Shown here: positions 3,890 to 49,439 of the stretch, one piece after another
Numbering within the stretch: position 1 is the stretch's first letter
Layout: each line of letters begins with the position of its first letter
Origin: Achatina immaculata
Lineage: Eukaryota > Mollusca > Gastropoda > Stylommatophora > Achatinidae
Assembly (NCBI GenBank): GCA_009760885.1
Contig: CM019691.1
Coordinates: 30,684,314-30,748,313 of the forward strand
DNA: 64,000 nucleotides
Reading direction: 5' to 3'
Program-made: the position numbers and the translations under genes
The notes under the pieces: model-generated
Databases searched by the model: none
What the model saw: only the letters and a program-made list of their open reading frames with translations
What the model was told of the DNA's origin: nothing

Positions 3890-4167
3890 TGCCAGATAAA
3901 ACAACAGCCAAGGGTGGAAGTCATCTTCAGACGCTCATCTCCAAATATCGCAGTCACAGTGAGAAAGAAGAGACAACTCCACAGCGAGCTGCTAAACCCT
4001 TATCTGGAGTTATCCCTCAAAAGTTGGTTTCAAAAAGTGCCTTTGATGGGACTGCACCTAAAGTATCCATAAGACACAACAATGGTACAGAATTCACAGC
4101 AAGCAAAAGACTTCCAGCATCTCCTTCATCCAAATCTTCCTCTTTTTCACTCTTATCACAAAAATGA
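3890..4167 (+). CDS. Terminal coding exon of the same unrecognised host gene
   Basis: The acceptor ttttaacag precedes 3890. The first two bases complete the codon left open by the 991-1072 exon, giving NEPVPDKTTAK across the junction. The frame stays open for about 92 codons to a tga at 4165-4167. The protein end is Ser/Lys/Pro-rich and probably disordered, with HLQTLISKYRSHSEKEE near its start and SKSSSFSLLSQK at the C-terminus. No catalytic motif or membrane segment is visible. The low-complexity make-up prevents naming a family. Phase continuity is the main argument that it is real. Confidence 0.55.
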
Positions 4168-4959
4168 ACTTTCACACAAGCTTTGTCTGGAGAGAATGCT
4201 ACTGCAGTATCACTGCATCACTAGATCATCCCCTTACATACAAATTAACTTGCAAATATCAGTATCTGCTAGGAAAAGCAGCTCTTATATAGGCCTGCCT
4301 GAAACCAGAAATGAATGTCAAGAGAAAAAATAATGGTCCTAGAATGAATGCGGAGATTATTAATCAATTCTTTCTTGACTTTTTCTTTGTTTTTAATGTA
4401 AATTTTGTTTCTCATGCGATGGCAGGAAGTATGCCAGTTTGTCATAATATGTGAATGATATTTAACTCTGAGTTTGTTTTTTTTTGCTCTTAATCAACAA
4501 GGAACAGCATGATCTCTTTTTTATCTCTTCTTCCTTTCCTGGTGTCTTAGTAACACCAAGATTGCAGCACACGTAAAACAAAGAAAGTAAAGCAGCCGGC
4601 AGAAAATACTCATTACACTGACCATATAGTTCTAGAATTATTTAAGAAACTTTCACGCAAGAAAAAAAAAACCATAGATATCAGCTAATTGGTTATACAT
4701 GCTTTTTTCATTAATTTGTAGCTGCACCTAAAAGCATTTATTTACCATGTGAACAGAACAGCTCACATTTTTCCCTGCTCATGATCATTCTTGTAATGGT
4801 GATACACTGAAAATACTGACAATTCAATGTTCATGTCACACATGTTGCAAGAGGATCCCTTTCATTAAAGATTTTCTGCAGAATTTTAAAGAAATAATTG
4901 TTTAAAAAAACATCTAAAAACTTTTCTGATTATCACACATTAAAAAAATTTTTACTTTA
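4168..4959 (+). other. Probable 3' UTR and downstream DNA of the host gene
   Basis: No coding potential is visible here. I see no clear aataaa before the duplicated block. The first aataaa is at about 4998-5003, inside the 219-bp repeat, and is copied again at about 7103-7108 on the far side of the RTE-A insertion. Confidence 0.3.
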
Positions 4960-5178
4960 ATATATATCTCCATTTTGACATTAATCCTGTGTGAAAAATA
5001 AATCTTAATTTTGTGTACTTAATATTAATTTTCAGCTATGTAACACTATCTTTATAACATTAGAAAGCTGAATTCATTTAATTACCTATTATTATATGTT
5101 TGTTAAATATTCACTAATGCTGACTATATTCATCTGCTGTCTTTCTATCTCAGCATAACTATATTCATTATTATTACA
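4960..5178. repeat. 219-bp direct repeat, left copy (long target-site duplication)
   Basis: This block recurs at 7065-7283 with a constant offset of 2105 and a single mismatch (a at 5128, g at 7233). Matching stops abruptly at both ends: 4959/7064 and 5179/7284 differ. The two copies exactly bracket the 5'-truncated RTE-A element. Confidence 0.9.
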
Positions 5179-7064
5179 CCAAATCACAACGGCTTAAAGA
5201 ACGAGTTTTAAGTAATTATGCACAAAAAGACAAAGAAGTGAAGGAATCATGCCGTCAAGATAAACGTCAGTATTATGACAACTTAGCAGAGACAGCAGAG
5301 AAAGCAGCATATACAAATGACATGAAAACCATATATAAAATCACAAAGCAGATGACAGGTAACTTCAATACAAGATGTGAAAGTGCAGTAAGAACACAAA
5401 ATGGACAACTGGTCAGTGGAGAAAGAGAAAAAATTGAAAGATGGAGGGAACACTTTAACACCCTACTAAACAGAACACAAGCAGCACAAGCAATAGATAT
5501 ACCTGAAGCAAAAGCGGAACTAAACATCAATACAGGACCAATAACAATAAATGAAGTAAAAGAGGCGATAAAGATGCTAAAATCAGACAGGGCACCAGGT
5601 GAAGATGAAGTGACTGCTGAGATGTTGAAAGCAGAAGAAACAGAAACACAAAAACAACTTTGCCGGATATTACAACAAATTTGGGATTTAGAAAAAGCCC
5701 CAGAGGAGTGGAAAACTGGTCTTATAGTAAAACTACCAAAGAAGGGTGACCTCAGAGATTGCGGGAACTGGAGAGGCATTACCCTACTGCCACTCACTAG
5801 TAAAGTATTTTGCAGAATAATCATCAACAGAATTGTACCAATACTTGAGGAAAAACTTCGGAAAGAGCAGGCAGGATTTAGGAAAGGAAGATCATGCATA
5901 GACCATATATTTGTACTTAGACAAATATTAGAACAGGCAAATGAGTGGCATAGCACAACATATGCATTATTCATAGATTTTGAGAAAGCCTTTGACAGTG
6001 TCAACAGGGATGCACTGTGGAAAATCCTAAGATGGCATGGCCTCCCCCATAAAATAGTTAATGTAATCAAAGCCCTATACGAGGGTTTTCAGTGCAAAGT
6101 TATCTGTGGAGAACATACCTCCAGCAGCTTTAGGGTACAAACAGGAGTGAAACAGGGATGTGTACTATCACCAACATTATTTATCTTGGCAGTAGACTGG
6201 TTAATGAAGGAGGCAACATCAGACAAACGCAGAGGATTACAATGGACCCTTAACACAGTGCTGGAGGACCTTGACTTTGCGGACGACATTTGTCTATTAT
6301 CAAGCAGTCACAAAGATATGCAAGATAAAATAAACAAGTTAACCCAGAATGCAAACAACATAGGACTAAAGATCAACGTAGGAAAGACAAAATTAATGAA
6401 GCAAAATGTGAACAACAGAAATGTACTCAGAGTAGATAACAAGTTAGTGGAGGAGGTCAACGAATTTGTATACCTTGGCAGCAGAGTAGTAGAAAATGGA
6501 GACAGCACAGAGGACATCAACAGCAGACTTACTAGAGCAAACCAGGCTTTTGCAATGCTACAGAATATATGGAAATCAAATAAACTAAGCATAAATATGA
6601 AAATCAGGATATTTAAGAGTAATGTTCTAAGTGTACTACTCTATGGTAGTGAATGCTGGAAAATCACCAAAACCATAGAAAACAAGTTGAATTCTTTCCA
6701 GACTAAATGTTTACGTAGAATTAAAAAAATATTTTGGCCAAACACCATAAGAAATAACATCTTATTGGCAGAAATGCAGATGAAACCACTGACAACAATT
6801 ATTGAGGAAAGACGCTGGCGATGGTTGGGACATGTGCTCAGAATGACTGACAACTCACTACCAAAAATAGCACTAAGATGGACACCACAGGGGAACAGAA
6901 GTAAGGGTAGACCAAAAGAGACATGGAGAAGAACAACAGAAAGGATGTTGAGCAATAGAGGGCTCACCTGGGCAAGAGCAGAAAAAAAGGCGAAAGACAG
7001 GCATTTGTGGAAAACCCTTGCGGAAGCCCCATGTGCCCTGGGCACTTAAGGTTCAGAGAGAGAG
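5179..7064 (+). mobile_element. RTE-A: 5'-truncated RTE-type LINE with an open reverse transcriptase
   Basis: The insertion is 1886 bp. It starts inside coding sequence with the left repeat copy and ends after the stop with gttcagagagagaga, a short (GA)n tail like the (GA)n tails of the other RTE-A copies. The upstream apurinic endonuclease half is missing, so it cannot move alone. Its near intact frame and the one-mismatch flanking repeats suggest recent insertion, just downstream of the host terminal exon. Confidence 0.9.
5181..7049 (+). CDS. Reverse transcriptase (C-terminal two-thirds of an RTE-clade LINE protein)
   Basis: The frame is open from 5181, before the first Met codon at 5238, so the start is an artefact of 5' truncation. 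In order it shows: a linker; the fingers with EEWKTGLIVKLPKKGD and NWRGITLLPLTSK; EQAGFRKGRSCIDHIFVLRQ; motif A FIDFEKAFDSV near 5970-6003; GVKQGCVLSPTLF; the catalytic FADD of motif C near 6275; and the thumb. The C-terminal block RRWRWLGHVLRM and RSKGRPKETWRRT is typical of RTE elements, and the protein ends CALGT. All RT catalytic residues appear present. The endonuclease is absent. At about 622 residues it compares with roughly 1000 for full-length relatives. It would act by target-primed reverse transcription. Confidence 0.9.
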   Translation, partial: KSQRLKERVLSNYAQKDKEVKESCRQDKRQYYDNLAETAEKAAYTNDMKTIYKITKQMTGNFNTRCESAVRTQNGQLVSGEREKIERWREHFNTLLNRTQAAQAIDIPEAKAELNINTGPITINEVKEAIKMLKSDRAPGEDEVTAEMLKAEETETQKQLCRILQQIWDLEKAPEEWKTGLIVKLPKKGDLRDCGNWRGITLLPLTSKVFCRIIINRIVPILEEKLRKEQAGFRKGRSCIDHIFVLRQILEQANEWHSTTYALFIDFEKAFDSVNRDALWKILRWHGLPHKIVNVIKALYEGFQCKVICGEHTSSSFRVQTGVKQGCVLSPTLFILAVDWLMKEATSDKRRGLQWTLNTVLEDLDFADDICLLSSSHKDMQDKINKLTQNANNIGLKINVGKTKLMKQNVNNRNVLRVDNKLVEEVNEFVYLGSRVVENGDSTEDINSRLTRANQAFAMLQNIWKSNKLSINMKIRIFKSNVLSVLLYGSECWKITKTIENKLNSFQTKCLRRIKKIFWPNTIRNNILLAEMQMKPLTTIIEERRWRWLGHVLRMTDNSLPKIALRWTPQGNRSKGRPKETWRRTTERMLSNRGLTWARAEKKAKDRHLWKTLAEAPCALGT

Positions 7065-7283
7065 ATATATATCTCCATTTTGACATTAATCCTGTGTGAA
7101 AAATAAATCTTAATTTTGTGTACTTAATATTAATTTTCAGCTATGTAACACTATCTTTATAACATTAGAAAGCTGAATTCATTTAATTACCTATTATTAT
7201 ATGTTTGTTAAATATTCACTAATGCTGACTATGTTCATCTGCTGTCTTTCTATCTCAGCATAACTATATTCATTATTATTACA
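7065..7283. repeat. 219-bp direct repeat, right copy
   Basis: This copy is identical to 4960-5178 except at 7233. It follows the (GA)n tail of RTE-A directly. Confidence 0.9.
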
Positions 7284-9239: not shown

Positions 9240-9360
9240 AGTACTGTGAAGTTTTAACTGTTTTGTACTGTGAAGTTTTAACTGTTTTGTACTGTGAAGT
9301 TTTAAATGTTTTGTACTGTGAAGTTTTAACTGTTATGTATTGTAAAATTTTAACCGTTTT
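9240..9360. repeat. About 24-bp minisatellite, 5 units
   Basis: The unit gtactgtgaagttttaactg plus tttt is repeated five times and decays toward the right end. Confidence 0.9.
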
Positions 9361-30114: not shown

Positions 30115-30270
30115 TGACTGACTCTATATTTTTCATTTATATGTTCTCATCTTACTTTCTGCTATTCTTGTTTCTGCCCACTTTCCTAACTTTATCTTTT
30201 TTTGTAAAACTGAACCATACACCTCTATCTACATTCAGTACATCCCAGTCATCGCCAGCATCTTTCCTCA
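30115..30270 (+). mobile_element. FB half element
   Basis: atgttctcatcttactttct through aaaactgaaccatacacctc to ctacattcag matches the outward half of the FB family. The partner half is missing. Confidence 0.7.
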
Positions 30271-30474
30271 GTAATCGAAGTCAATGGCTTCGTCTGCGTT
30301 TCTGTCATTAATGTGTTATTTCTCATGGTGTTTGCCAAAAATATTCGTTACAACGGATTACAATATTACTTTGAAAAAGACACTGACGGCTTAGCCGTTG
30401 ACAGGAGTATACATGTTGTTTGTTAACTGAAAAAGAAATAAGAGCTGAGATTGTTGTTTTACCTTACCGTTGTC

Positions 30475-42427: not shown

Positions 42428-42454
42428 ATATATATATATTTATATATATCTGAA
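42428..42454. repeat. (TA)n flank, low side of RTE-A
   Basis: A TA tract follows poly-C and abuts the RTE-A 3' end directly. Confidence 0.85.
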
Positions 42455-43611
42455 TCTTAAGTGCCCAGGGCACATGGGGCTTCCGCAAGAGTTTTCCACA
42501 ATTGCCTGTCCTTCGCCTTTTTTTCTGCTCTTGCCCAGGTGAGCCCTCTATTGCTCAACATCCTTTCTGTTGTTCTTCTCCATGTCTCCTTTGGTCTACC
42601 CTTACTTCTGCTCCCCTGTGGCGTCCATCTTAGTGCTATCTTTGGTAGTGAGTTGTCAGTCATTCGGAGCACATGTCCCAACCATCGCCAGCGTCTTTCC
42701 TCAATAATTGTTGTCAGTGGTTTCATCTGCATTTCTGCTAATAAGATGTTATTTCTTATGGTGTTTGGCCAAAATATTTTTCTAATTCTTCGTAAACATT
42801 TAGTCTGGAAAGAATTCAACTTGTTTTCTATGGTTTTGGTGATTTTCCAGCATTCACTTCCATAGAGTAGTACACTTAGAACGTTACTCTTAAATATCCT
42901 GATTTTCATATTTATGCTTAGTTTTTTTGATTTCCATATAGTCTGCAGCATTGCAAAAGCCTGGTTTGCTCTAGTAAGTCTGCTGTTGATGTCCTCTGTG
43001 CTGTCTCCATTTTCTACTACTCTGCTGCCAAGGTATACAAATTCGTTGACCTCCTCCACTAACTTGTTATCTACTCTGAGTACATTTCTGTTGTTCACAT
43101 TTTGCTTCATTAACTTTGTCTTTCCTACGTTGATCTTTAGTCCTATGTTGTTTGCATTCTGAGTTAGCTTGTTTATTTTATATTGCATATCTTTGTGACT
43201 GCTTGATAATAGACAAATATCGTCCGCAAAGTCAAGGTCCTCCAGCACTGTGTCAAGGGTCCATTGTAATCCTCTGCGTTTGTCTGATGTTGCCTCCTTC
43301 ATTAACCAGTCTACTGCCAAGATAAATAATGTTGGTGATAGTACACATCCCTGTTTCACTCCTGTTTGTACCCTAAAGCTGCTGGAGGTATGTTCTCCAC
43401 AGATAACTTTGCACTGAAAACCCTCGTATAGGGCTTTGATTACATTAACTGTTTTATGGGGGAGGCCATGCCATCTTAGGATTTTCCACAGTCAAAAGCT
43501 TTCTCAAAATCTATGAATAATGCATATGTTGTGCTATGCCACTCATTTGCCTGTTCTAATATTTGTCTAAGTACAAATATGTGGTCTATGTATGATCTTC
43601 CTTTCCTAAAT

Positions 43612-43613
<2 letters not shown>
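42455..43613 (-). mobile_element. RTE-A, 5'-truncated copy inserted in a (TA)n tract
   Basis: Minus strand. The C-terminal frame 43359-42457 is open for 300 codons from MKQGCVLSPTLF through FADDICLL to CALGT, nearly identical to the 5.2-kb copy. Upstream, a one-base loss near 43490 (FEKAFDCGKS in place of FDSVNRD) separates it from GFRKGRSYIDHIFVLRQ in another frame. It begins abruptly at about 43613 next to (TA)n. It lacks the (GA)n tail; TA repeats stand there instead. Confidence 0.9.
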
Positions 43614-44296: not shown

Positions 44297-45074
44297 CTAC
44301 AAAGCAACAACAGGGACAGCATCCTGCTTCTGCGTATTTTTTCTTACTAAAGTAGTGTATTCAGTGTACGAGTGAAGAGTAATCGGTCGCTGTGCCGTGT
44401 CAAAGCCGTGGCAGCAACATTTTTTGCAACAGCTAAACTTGTGGAAGATAATTTTAAACTTGCTGCGAAAGTTGTCGCTGAATATGCAGTATAAAACTGG
44501 GTTGGCAGCAGAGTTGATGTATGCTAGAGTTGTAGTGAAGACGTGAAAAACCCAGGTCTTGTCAAAGCCAGCACTGGAGAACGTGTTGTAGAATAAAAGA
44601 ATTTGATGCGGAGAGTAACTGAGGAAGTAGATGGCGACACTAGCCATCAGCATCTTAACCACCCCCTTCCTGGCGCGAATTGCTTCGTTTACAGCACGTG
44701 GTCCACGCCTGCTTGTACGTAACGAAGAGTTAAAGCCGCTGCTGTTCCGATGAAGTTTTTCCACGCCCACAAATAAACGTTTACCAATAACAGTGTAGCA
44801 AACAACTTGAATGATAAGAGGTCCAAGATAGAAGAGAGCACACTCTGTGTATTTGAAGATGCGGTTGTAGACTTCATGTTGGCTTCTGTTCGTATGAAAC
44901 TGAGTGATGCAGAAGTCTTGAGGTGGGGTCTCCGACAACCGAAGCACACGATTAAACACAGTAGTGGGCGTGGCGCAGAGTCCAGAGAAGAGCCATATAA
45001 GGATAATGACGATAAAAACTCTCCTTTTCGTACACAGGATGTGGGCTTTGATAGGGAACACGATGGCAATGTAC
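44297..45074 (-). CDS. Class A (rhodopsin-like) neuropeptide-type GPCR, last exon: TM4 to C-terminus
   Basis: The exon starts after the acceptor ttcttcttgttctccag with G-TAC-ATT, so it completes an Arg codon and gives R-YIAIVFPIKA. This is the end of TM3 (DRY) and ICL2. Then follow TM4 (VFIVIILIWLFSGLC), an ECL2 Cys in DFCITQF, TM5 (CALFYLGPLIIQVVCYTVI), an Arg-rich ICL3, TM6 (MLMASVAIYFLSYSPHQIL), and TM7 with NSAANPVLYCIFS (NPxxY) followed by DNFRSKFKIIF as helix 8. A Cys cluster, CCKKCCC, is a likely palmitoylation site. The C-tail ends QDAVPVVAL. The TM6 toggle position is Tyr, not Trp, as also in orexin/allatotropin-type receptors. The ligand is unknown. The frame is intact, so this looks functional. 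Confidence 0.9.
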
Positions 45075-46069
45075 CTGGAGAACAAGAAGAATTCATTTCA
45101 TCAAAGATTTTAAAATGCTGTTATAATTAATTGTATCTTGTCTTCATTCACACATTTCGGAGACTGAATACAGGAACTGATCTAATATCATACAAAATGC
45201 ACCCTTCTTGGCCCAGTATAATATCGTTACATTTTCCAACATTTATGATCTCCTCTTGTTGTTTCTAATATGTGTTTCTAAAAAATGATAACTCATTCAC
45301 TGAGGCGAGTTATTATTGTCGAAAAACATCGACTAATCTAGCAAAAGAAATAGATGACACAGGGTATTACGAATTATTCGTCCTGCACATTATCATAATG
45401 AACACATACATGACAGGAGAAAGTAAGATCTAAAACTGATAAAATAATAAGCATTTTCTAACATACTTTAGGGAAACCTTGAAAGAAACAGTGCAAGCGG
45501 ATGACAGCGATGTAGATGGTTGGGCAATTTTAAGAAGATGGCTGGTTTCAGCTATCCTGGGTGCACTATGAAAGCCAAGAACCTGAACAAACTGAAAGAC
45601 CAGTGCGGCCATCATTTCCTGGGGAGACGGCATAGGGTGATAAAGAATCGACTTTCGGATGAGAAGTAGCAAGTGATTTCCTTCACACTGCATTGTGATA
45701 CTTGGAGAATGGTCTTGGGTTGGAAGAAACTGATCAAACTTCTGACTCAAATAGCTCAACATTAAACGCACACATCTGCAGCCCTTAATCATCAACACAT
45801 TGCACAGTAACAATATACTTGAGTGTCTTGAAATGAATGCGTGGATCAGTCAGTAACACTTTTCATCTAAGTTAGTCTTGGGATAAAATTATGATATACT
45901 TAACTCTCTTTCAAATGATGTTCATCCATCATGCCAATCTCTCTGTCAGTTTTTTTTTTTTCAAAGAAGGCAGGTGCAAAGATTTTACAGACGATTTCAT
46001 GATTCAAAATATATGTGAGCTATGTAACATGTGAGCATATATTTGTTATGAGCATAATAGTTTATAAAC
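45075..46069 (-). other. GPCR intron sequence with one long unassigned open frame
   Basis: The minus frame 45813-45430 is open for 127 codons (MLLCNVLMIKGCRCVRLMLS, then HSPSITMQCEGNHLLLLIRK and MMAALVFQFVQVLGF). It does not match TM2 or TM3 in any frame. It may be chance, a retro-fragment, or an exon of another gene. Confidence 0.35.
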
Positions 46070-48281: not shown

Positions 48282-48538
48282 CTCCCTATCTCTCTCTCTC
48301 TCTCTAAAACGTAAGTGCCAAAGGAACATGGAGCTTCCGCATGGGTTTTCAACAAAAGCCTGTTCTTTTCCTTTTTTTTCCGCTCTTGCCCAAAAGAGCC
48401 CTCTGTTGTTCAACATCCTCTCTGTTGTTCTTCTCCATGTCTCCTTTGGTCTACCCTTACTTCTGTTCCCCTGTGGTATTATTTTTGTTACTGAGTTGTC
48501 AGTCATCTGGAGCATATGTCCCAACCATAGGGCCGGTA
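48282..48538 (-). mobile_element. RTE-A 3' portion of a 5'-inverted insertion
   Basis: After a (CT)n tract, aaaacgtaagtgccaaagga begins the reversed RTE-A C-terminus, reading WRRTTERMLNNRGLFWARAE and GNRSKGRPKETWRR. It stops near gtcccaaccatagg, where the orientation switches. Confidence 0.85.
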
Positions 48539-48800
48539 GCCATACCCGGTAAAAAATCTATCAAAGTGCTACAGAAACAGAAACAAGGGAAAAACAAAAG
48601 TAGGTGGATGGGGAAACGCATATTAGGAAACTGAGCCCATGAAGGTTGTGGATGAAAGCCAGCAACTGGAAATCCCCAGACCGACTGCAGACCTCCTGGA
48701 GCCGAAACACAAGGTGCAAATAGGCAGCTGGAATGTAAGAACACTTAATCAAACTGAAAAAATAGCACAAACCATCAAGGAAATGCACATGTACAAAATA
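48539..48800 (+). mobile_element. RTE-A 5' portion: start of the endonuclease, inverted relative to the 3' portion
   Basis: The plus strand encodes DESQQLEIPRPTADLLEPKH followed by KVQIGSWNVRTLNQTEKIAQ and TIKEM. GSWNVRTL is the N-terminal motif of RTE apurinic-type endonucleases. It ends abruptly near 48800. This is the only piece of the element's 5' end in the window. Confidence 0.8.
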
Positions 48801-49439
48801 TAAATAATTTAATGCATAACTGAAAAGAAACTCTCTTCCATATCTCTTCACGAAGCAGTAGACCTTGGTGTTAGTGTGATATGAAACTAAATAAATACAT
48901 AAATCGATAGGTTTGTGACAGTTTTTGCCATTTTCTAACCAAACAAGTCTTCGTTTGCTTAACTGCTGGAAGACTTTTTGCACGAGTTAGGAAGTCACGT
49001 ACGAGAATACGCTCTCTCGTGAGATCCCGGGACCAGATAAATTTTATAAGCGCCATGTAAATATGGCGGAATGTTGATGGATTTCTAAATATTGTAGAAT
49101 AACGGCAGCCAGTTTAGTACAAGCCGTGGAAGCGTTGTTAGTTCATGATATTTGTGTGTGGGCATAATTCTTATTTGGAGATGTGCTACAAGTTTTTCTT
49201 CAACTATACAAGCAAAGCAACGTTTTCTGCCTGCTTTACTCTTTATTGTGTCTTACTTATGTTCCAATGAAGAGAGTGCACAAGCGTTGATCTTGTGTCA
49301 GATCTTCCTCAGTGTCTCCTATTTTTGTTAATTTACTTTTTAAAAAAAATGAGAGTCACGGCAAATAGAGTTATATGCATTCATCTATGACTACATCAAA
49401 AATGATATTTTACTCGCCTTTATTCATGCGTGATCATAT
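48801..49439. other. Intergenic or intronic DNA
   Basis: No gene is recognised. gccatgtaaatatggcgg near 49052-49069 is a small palindrome-like motif. Confidence 0.4.

What the first reader, a model, noticed from the sequence alone, without database searches (positions are those of the whole stretch)
4960..7283. 219-bp direct repeats exactly flank a 5'-truncated RTE LINE
4960-5178 and 7065-7283 are identical but for one base and end exactly at the element borders. LINE target duplications are normally about 5-20 bp, and another copy of this same family at 21.7 kb has 11 bp. A 219-bp duplication implies either very widely spaced nicks with fill-in, or insertion by a recombination or repair route. 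Because it carries an aataaa, it also duplicates a possible polyadenylation signal of the adjacent host gene.
Basis: seen in the sequence. Interest (0 to 1): 0.8.

Follow-up and report, generated by a model that had tools for sequence, protein, structure and literature searches.

The report
LINE insertion with unusually long duplication
A recently inserted jumping-gene fragment, in what looks like a snail or slug genome, is flanked by a 219-base copy of its landing site instead of the usual 11 or 12 bases, a rare but already known outcome of this kind of insertion.

Summary
4960-5178 and 7065-7283 are 219-bp direct repeats with one mismatch that abut a 1,886-bp 5'-truncated RTE-type LINE at both borders. 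The 219 bp has two matches in the 1.65-Gb assembly, both here, so it is target DNA, not part of the element.

I measured target-site duplications (TSDs) of other copies. Of 27 close relatives whose 5' end was reached, 22 have 8-14 bp (mostly 11-12) and 5 have none that I could find. Of 16 other copies in 264 kb, 6 have about 6-13 bp, 3 lie in (AT)n, 7 show none. No other copy showed a long TSD in unique sequence.

So this copy is an outlier, yet its junctions look like ordinary target-primed reverse transcription: the family's cleavage signature within 2-4 bp of the repeat start, a (GA)n tail, 5' truncation, 3-nt microhomology. Best explanation: a normal first nick, completed from a second-strand nick about 219 nt away. 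Long TSDs are a known minority class of LINE insertions: 1 of 25 in wild-type DT40 cells, at most 10% over 100 bp in HeLa. Rare, not new in kind.

The parts
4960..5178 (+). first copy of the 219-bp duplicated target DNA
   Evidence: two matches in the assembly
4946..4964 (+). probable first-nick region: T stretch about 10 nt before T|A in an AT run
   Evidence: starts 4962 and 4964 score in the top 0.26% and 0.20% of window positions; literal start 4960 only in the top 16%
5176..5178 (+). 3-nt microhomology (ACA) between target and element at the 5' junction
   Evidence: three longer copies end ...ACA at this point; alignment to a longer copy starts at 5176
5179..7064 (+). 5'-truncated RTE-type LINE, 1,886 bp, including the (GA)n tail
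5181..7049 (+). open remainder of the LINE ORF, 622 aa and stop: RVT_1 and DUF6451
7050..7064 (+). short 3' UTR: GGTTCA followed by GA repeats
   Evidence: same end in the 39 relatives
7065..7283 (+). second copy of the 219-bp duplicated target DNA
4997..5002 (+). AATAAA in the first repeat copy; its duplicate is at 7102-7107
3890..4167 (+). possible terminal exon of a host gene (pyrimidine-rich tract and AG before it, TGA stop at 4165-4167)
   Evidence: reading of the sequence only, no homology test

Best explanation
A recent retrotransposition of a young, multicopy RTE-type LINE, probably in a gastropod. The element's endonuclease nicked the bottom strand at its usual kind of site (T stretch, about 10 nt, T|A; here in an AT run at about 4960-4964). 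Reverse transcription started there from the (GA)n 3' end and stopped early (5' truncation). The top strand was then not cut about 11-12 nt away as usual, but was completed from a nick about 219 nt downstream. Filling in that long stagger left the 219 bp on both sides, and the 5' end was joined at 3 nt of microhomology. Shown: the repeat, its borders, its absence elsewhere in the assembly, the junction features, the family's TSD lengths. Inferred: the order of events and the distant second nick. Unknown: what made that nick (the element's enzyme, replication, damage or repair).
For: 219-bp repeat bordering the LINE on both sides; only two matches in the assembly; family signature at starts 4962/4964 (top 0.26% and 0.20% of window positions); same GGTTCA(GA)n end as 39 relatives; 3-nt microhomology at the truncated 5' end; close relatives make 8-14 bp TSDs in 22 of 27 cases; the youth of the copy (last 280 bp identical in 39 others; 2 mismatches in 1,611 bp to the closest full-cover copy) fits 1 mismatch in 219. 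Long TSDs are known in LINE assays (PMC5223499 and PMC2666801, passages).
Against: No empty allele or reads were available. The literal repeat start (4960) scores worse than 20 of the 22 family sites used for the matrix; only a 2-4 bp shift rescues it, and seven starts were looked at. No second long-TSD copy was found, so there is no second case to show the same route.
Confidence: 0.83

Rival explanations
1. A 219-bp tandem duplication existed first, and the LINE inserted exactly at the junction of its two units without making a TSD of its own.
For: Some copies of this family show no TSD that I could find: 5 of 27 young relatives and 7 of 16 in the 264 kb. Young copies lie in tandem repeats more often than random DNA (8 of 39 versus 70 of 1,000).
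Against: It needs insertion at one exact base of the 219-bp unit, and no TSD as well. A normal 11-12 bp TSD would leave an extra 11-12 bp that is not there. No further unit of the 219 bp exists in the assembly.
Confidence: 0.07
2. The LINE cDNA was captured at a broken chromosome end during repair, and repair synthesis copied the 219 bp; the element's own nicking was not involved.
For: The literal start 4960 is a mediocre match to the family's nick signature. Microhomology joining at the 5' end is also typical of end joining.
Against: The 3' end is complete, with the family's (GA)n tail, where capture often loses the end (recalled). A good signature lies within 2-4 bp. A 3-nt microhomology lies within the 0-4 nt of other truncated copies with short TSDs.
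Confidence: 0.06
3. Assembly artefact: one copy of the 219 bp was written twice.
For: The raw reads were not available.
Against: The copies differ by one base and their edges fall on the LINE ends. The structure spans only 2.3 kb in a 111-Mb contig of an assembly with 145 contigs. No other contig carries the segment.
Confidence: 0.03

Closest known systems
RTE clade of non-LTR retrotransposons (Bov-B, Schistosoma SR3, lepidopteran RTEs)
   Same: Endonuclease plus reverse transcriptase, no RNase H match, very short 3' UTR of simple repeats, Tn-TA nick signature, family TSD of 11-12 bp like the 10-12 bp reported.
   Different: This one copy has 219 bp. Placement is by features and sequence similarity; I built no tree.
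Long target-site duplications of LINEs in cell assays (human L1; zebrafish ZfL2-2 in DT40)
   Same: 5'-truncated insertion with a direct repeat of hundreds of bp, a minority in repair-proficient cells: 1 of 25 ZfL2-2 in wild-type DT40 (1,228 bp); over 100 bp never above 10% in HeLa, but 57%, 91% and 79% in XPA-, XPC- and XPD-deficient cells.
   Different: A natural germline insertion in an invertebrate RTE family. The repair state of the host is unknown.
C. elegans Rte-1 (founder of the RTE clade)
   Same: I recall that its first described copy was reported with a direct repeat of about 200 bp.
   Different: Unverified recall: two searches did not show that report (listings) and I read nothing of it.

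Membership tests
RTE clade non-LTR retrotransposon | AP-endonuclease-like domain before the reverse transcriptase | tested here: met
   Met in a nearly full-length copy of the family (L019, Exo_endo_phos E 1.1e-14); lost by truncation in the copy at issue
RTE clade non-LTR retrotransposon | Reverse transcriptase domain | tested here: met
   RVT_1 E 1.3e-39
RTE clade non-LTR retrotransposon | No RNase H domain | tested here: met
   No RNase H match in the 622-aa remainder or in the two long ORFs of L019
RTE clade non-LTR retrotransposon | Very short 3' UTR of di- or trinucleotide repeats | tested here: met
   15 nt after the stop, GGTTCA plus GA repeats; same end in 39 relatives
RTE clade non-LTR retrotransposon | Place in the RTE clade of a reverse-transcriptase tree | not tested
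   No tree was built
[quoted passage not shown]
[quoted passage not shown]
   Strong at 4962 and 4964, weak at the literal start 4960
[quoted passage not shown]
   One assembly only; no other contig of it carries the segment

The most novel reading that the evidence does not exclude
This RTE family finishes insertion in two discrete ways: a fixed 11-12 bp stagger made by its own enzyme, and a rare outcome with a stagger near 200 nt set by host chromatin or replication (a nucleosome linker or a lagging-strand end). Long-TSD copies would then show how the host supplies the second nick, and would sometimes duplicate gene ends such as a poly(A) region.
Probability: 0.12. Interest if true: 0.55.

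Novelty: new member of a known kind. Interest (0 to 1): 0.3.

Why it matters
How LINEs cut the second strand and finish insertion is not settled. A natural insertion with a 219-bp stagger, in a family whose normal stagger is mostly 11-12 bp, suggests that completion can be uncoupled from the usual second cut outside cultured vertebrate cells. The assembly has 1,022 candidate copies, so the frequency and length distribution of such events could be counted directly. A 219-bp repeat around the element could also let recombination remove it and leave one copy (the idea is from PMC5223499, passages).

Tried and rejected
3' transduction or an LTR-like terminal repeat as source of the 219 bp: rejected, because the segment occurs only at these two places and is not at the ends of the other copies examined.

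A second long-TSD case: a 95-bp repeat (97.9%) around 4,682 bp in L006 was looked at and not accepted. A third, diverged copy lies inside the insert, and the left copy is about 2 kb from the nearest LINE ORF. It is not fully excluded.

Motif at the second nick: the scores that one search prints for boundaries 5176-5182 used the filled site, so they do not apply to the empty site and are not used. One search prints the right context without a score.

Doubtful rows that I counted: L028 and L030 lie in short tandem repeats. There, longer imperfect matches also reach the borders (41 bp at 93% in L028, 44 bp at 89% in L030). I count the exact matches next to the tail (11 and 12 bp). L040 is counted as 13 bp, read from the BLAST row, with about 40 nt of extra sequence at its 5' junction. 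L053 is counted as none, though a 7-nt match lies 2 nt off. 170a (7 bp) was read by eye.

Rows dropped: one search scored only 40 of 1,022 candidates, ours included, all 100% identical over 280 bp. Of the 39 others, 10 were not followed to the 5' end: nine whose 3' flank looked like a tandem repeat (L023, L027, L031, L036, L037, L039, L042, L049, L050), and L047, whose flank equals that of L048. Two of the 29 followed (L033, L060) ran past the fetched DNA. In the 264 kb two fragments without a 3' end (30243-30345 and near 201451) were left out. TSDs well over 320 bp could be missed where the fetched flank is short (L053 has 75 bp upstream). In one search I entered the wrong junction for L052, so its low value there is an input error; one search has the right one (12 bp).

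Literature: searched the held library; one search returned nothing. I read passages, not whole papers, of PMC1291365, PMC13295347, PMC5223499, PMC2887409, PMC2666801, PMC4245944, PMC1852546 and PMC3747384.

Full report
Observation. 4960-5178 and 7065-7283 are 219-bp direct repeats with one difference (5128 A, 7233 G), and similarity stops at once outside them. Between them lies a 1,886-bp LINE copy on the + strand that touches both repeats. Searched against the assembly (1.65 Gb, 145 contigs; the window is C1:30684314-30748313), the 219 bp has two matches, these two. It is target DNA, not part of the element.

The element. The 622-aa open remainder matches reverse transcriptase (RVT_1, E 1.3e-39) and DUF6451. 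It aligns to residues 378-998 of a 999-aa relative at 61% identity; the missing part would hold the endonuclease. A nearly full-length copy of 3,191 bp downstream (in L019) has the endonuclease (Exo_endo_phos, E 1.1e-14) and RVT_1 in separate open frames, with no RNase H match in the two long ORFs scanned. The 3' UTR is GGTTCA plus GA repeats. These are RTE-clade features as described in papers of which I read passages (PMC2887409; PMC1852546). I built no tree. The host is probably a pulmonate gastropod, an inference: a receptor exon in the window is 84% identical to a Candidula unifasciata protein.

Age. The last 280 bp are 100% identical in all 40 places scored, ours and 39 others, out of 1,022 candidates. 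Over 1,611 bp further 5' the closest of the seven compared copies that cover all of it (L061) has 2 mismatches. The two repeat copies differ at 1 of 219. This fits one recent insertion.

How unusual is 219 bp? I fetched the 3' flanks of the 39 relatives and the 5' sides of 29. Of the 27 whose 5' end was reached, 22 have TSDs of 8-14 bp, mostly 11-12 (17 of 20; 5 of 7). In 5 I found none (L035, L041, L043, L053, L056). With mispaired flanks a match of 10 bp or more arose in 0.4% of 702 pairs. Two of the 22 (L028, L030) lie in tandem repeats where longer imperfect matches (41 bp at 93%, 44 bp at 89%) also fit. Of 16 other copies with a 3' end in the 264 kb, 6 have TSDs of about 6-13 bp, 3 lie in (AT)n where length cannot be read, and 7 show none. 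So 28 other copies have a measurable TSD, taken as 14 bp or less in each. The 95% upper bound for long ones is about 10%. The present copy was picked because it is long, so it does not enter that estimate.

Junctions. A matrix from 22 other insertions has a T-rich stretch around -13 to -11 and T just before the TSD. This is the Tn-TA pattern reported for RTE elements (PMC13295347, passages). The A at +1 is partly built in, because it can also be the last base of the GA tail. Here starts at 4962 and 4964 score in the top 0.26% and 0.20% of window positions, but the literal start 4960 only in the top 16%, below 20 of the 22 sites left out one by one. A slip of 2-4 bp in the AT run would reconcile this; that is an inference. 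At the 5' end three longer copies have ACA where the target also has ACA, a 3-nt microhomology. Other truncated copies overlap by 0-4 nt, and three have extra bases instead (1 in L061, 2 in L034, about 40 in L040). So tail, truncation and 5' joining are ordinary, initiation probably so; the distance to the second-strand end is not.

Mechanism. [quoted passage not shown] RTE-clade elements peak at 10-12 bp (PMC4245944, passages), as here. Long TSDs occur as a minority. One of 25 ZfL2-2 insertions in wild-type DT40 had 1,228 bp. TSDs over 100 bp never exceeded 10% of HeLa L1 events, but made up 57% (XPA), 91% (XPC) and 79% (XPD) in repair-deficient cells and 3 of 9 in complemented XPD cells; the authors propose use of a distant unrelated nick (PMC5223499, passages). 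I take the same account: normal first nick, completion from a nick about 219 nt away, fill-in. What made that nick is unknown.

Rivals. A prior tandem duplication would need insertion at one exact base and no TSD of its own. Repair capture fits poorly with the complete 3' end and the nearby signature. An artefact is unlikely in a 111-Mb contig with a base difference between the copies. None can be closed without an empty allele or reads.

Host gene. An ORF ending at 4167, with a splice-acceptor-like start before 3890, looks like a terminal exon. The first AATAAA after its stop is at 4997, in the repeat; ATTAAA lies before it at 4864 and 4939. The first repeat copy stays upstream of the LINE, so loss of the signal is not expected. 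Any effect is untested.

Literature limits. My searches cover only the held open-access library. I recall, unverified, a repeat of about 200 bp around the first C. elegans Rte-1 copy; if right, even the RTE case has a precedent. I make no claim that long RTE TSDs are absent from print.

Verdict. A real, well-bordered, rare insertion outcome, and a new member of a known kind.

Noticed in passing
3' flanks L023-L061: Young copies lie next to tandem repeats more often than random DNA: 8 of 39 flanks versus 70 of 1,000 random 200-bp windows, p 0.005. The 39 are all identical over 280 bp and include one duplicated pair.
   Followed up: partly
42449-43613; L019:2314-5504; 255754-258135 of window plus L003-L022: Three copies sit inside (AT)n runs, like the AT-rich nick site of the copy at issue, so AT dinucleotide repeats may be a favoured target.
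   Followed up: partly
48303-48806: A copy with an inverted 5' piece (element positions 85-370 on the other strand), like the twin-priming inversions of L1.
   Followed up: no
L047 and L048 (C3, 1.48 kb apart): Two copies of the 3' end with the same 3' flank (200 bp compared), so a LINE and its flank were duplicated together.
   Followed up: no
L035/L068 and L052/L096: L035 carries an internal tandem overlap of the element and no TSD; L052 is inserted into another copy of the same family.
   Followed up: no
L040/L098: A 13-bp TSD followed by about 40 nt of extra DNA that seems to hold an inverted copy of the TSD at the 5' junction (the inversion read by eye).
   Followed up: no
L006:4468-4562 and 9245-9339: A 95-bp direct repeat (97.9%) around 4,682 bp that contains another LINE on the - strand; a third diverged copy lies inside.
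   Followed up: partly
44297-45097 (- strand): A receptor-gene exon (7tm_1), 84% identical to a land-snail protein and related to sequences named neuropeptide receptor 15.
   Followed up: partly
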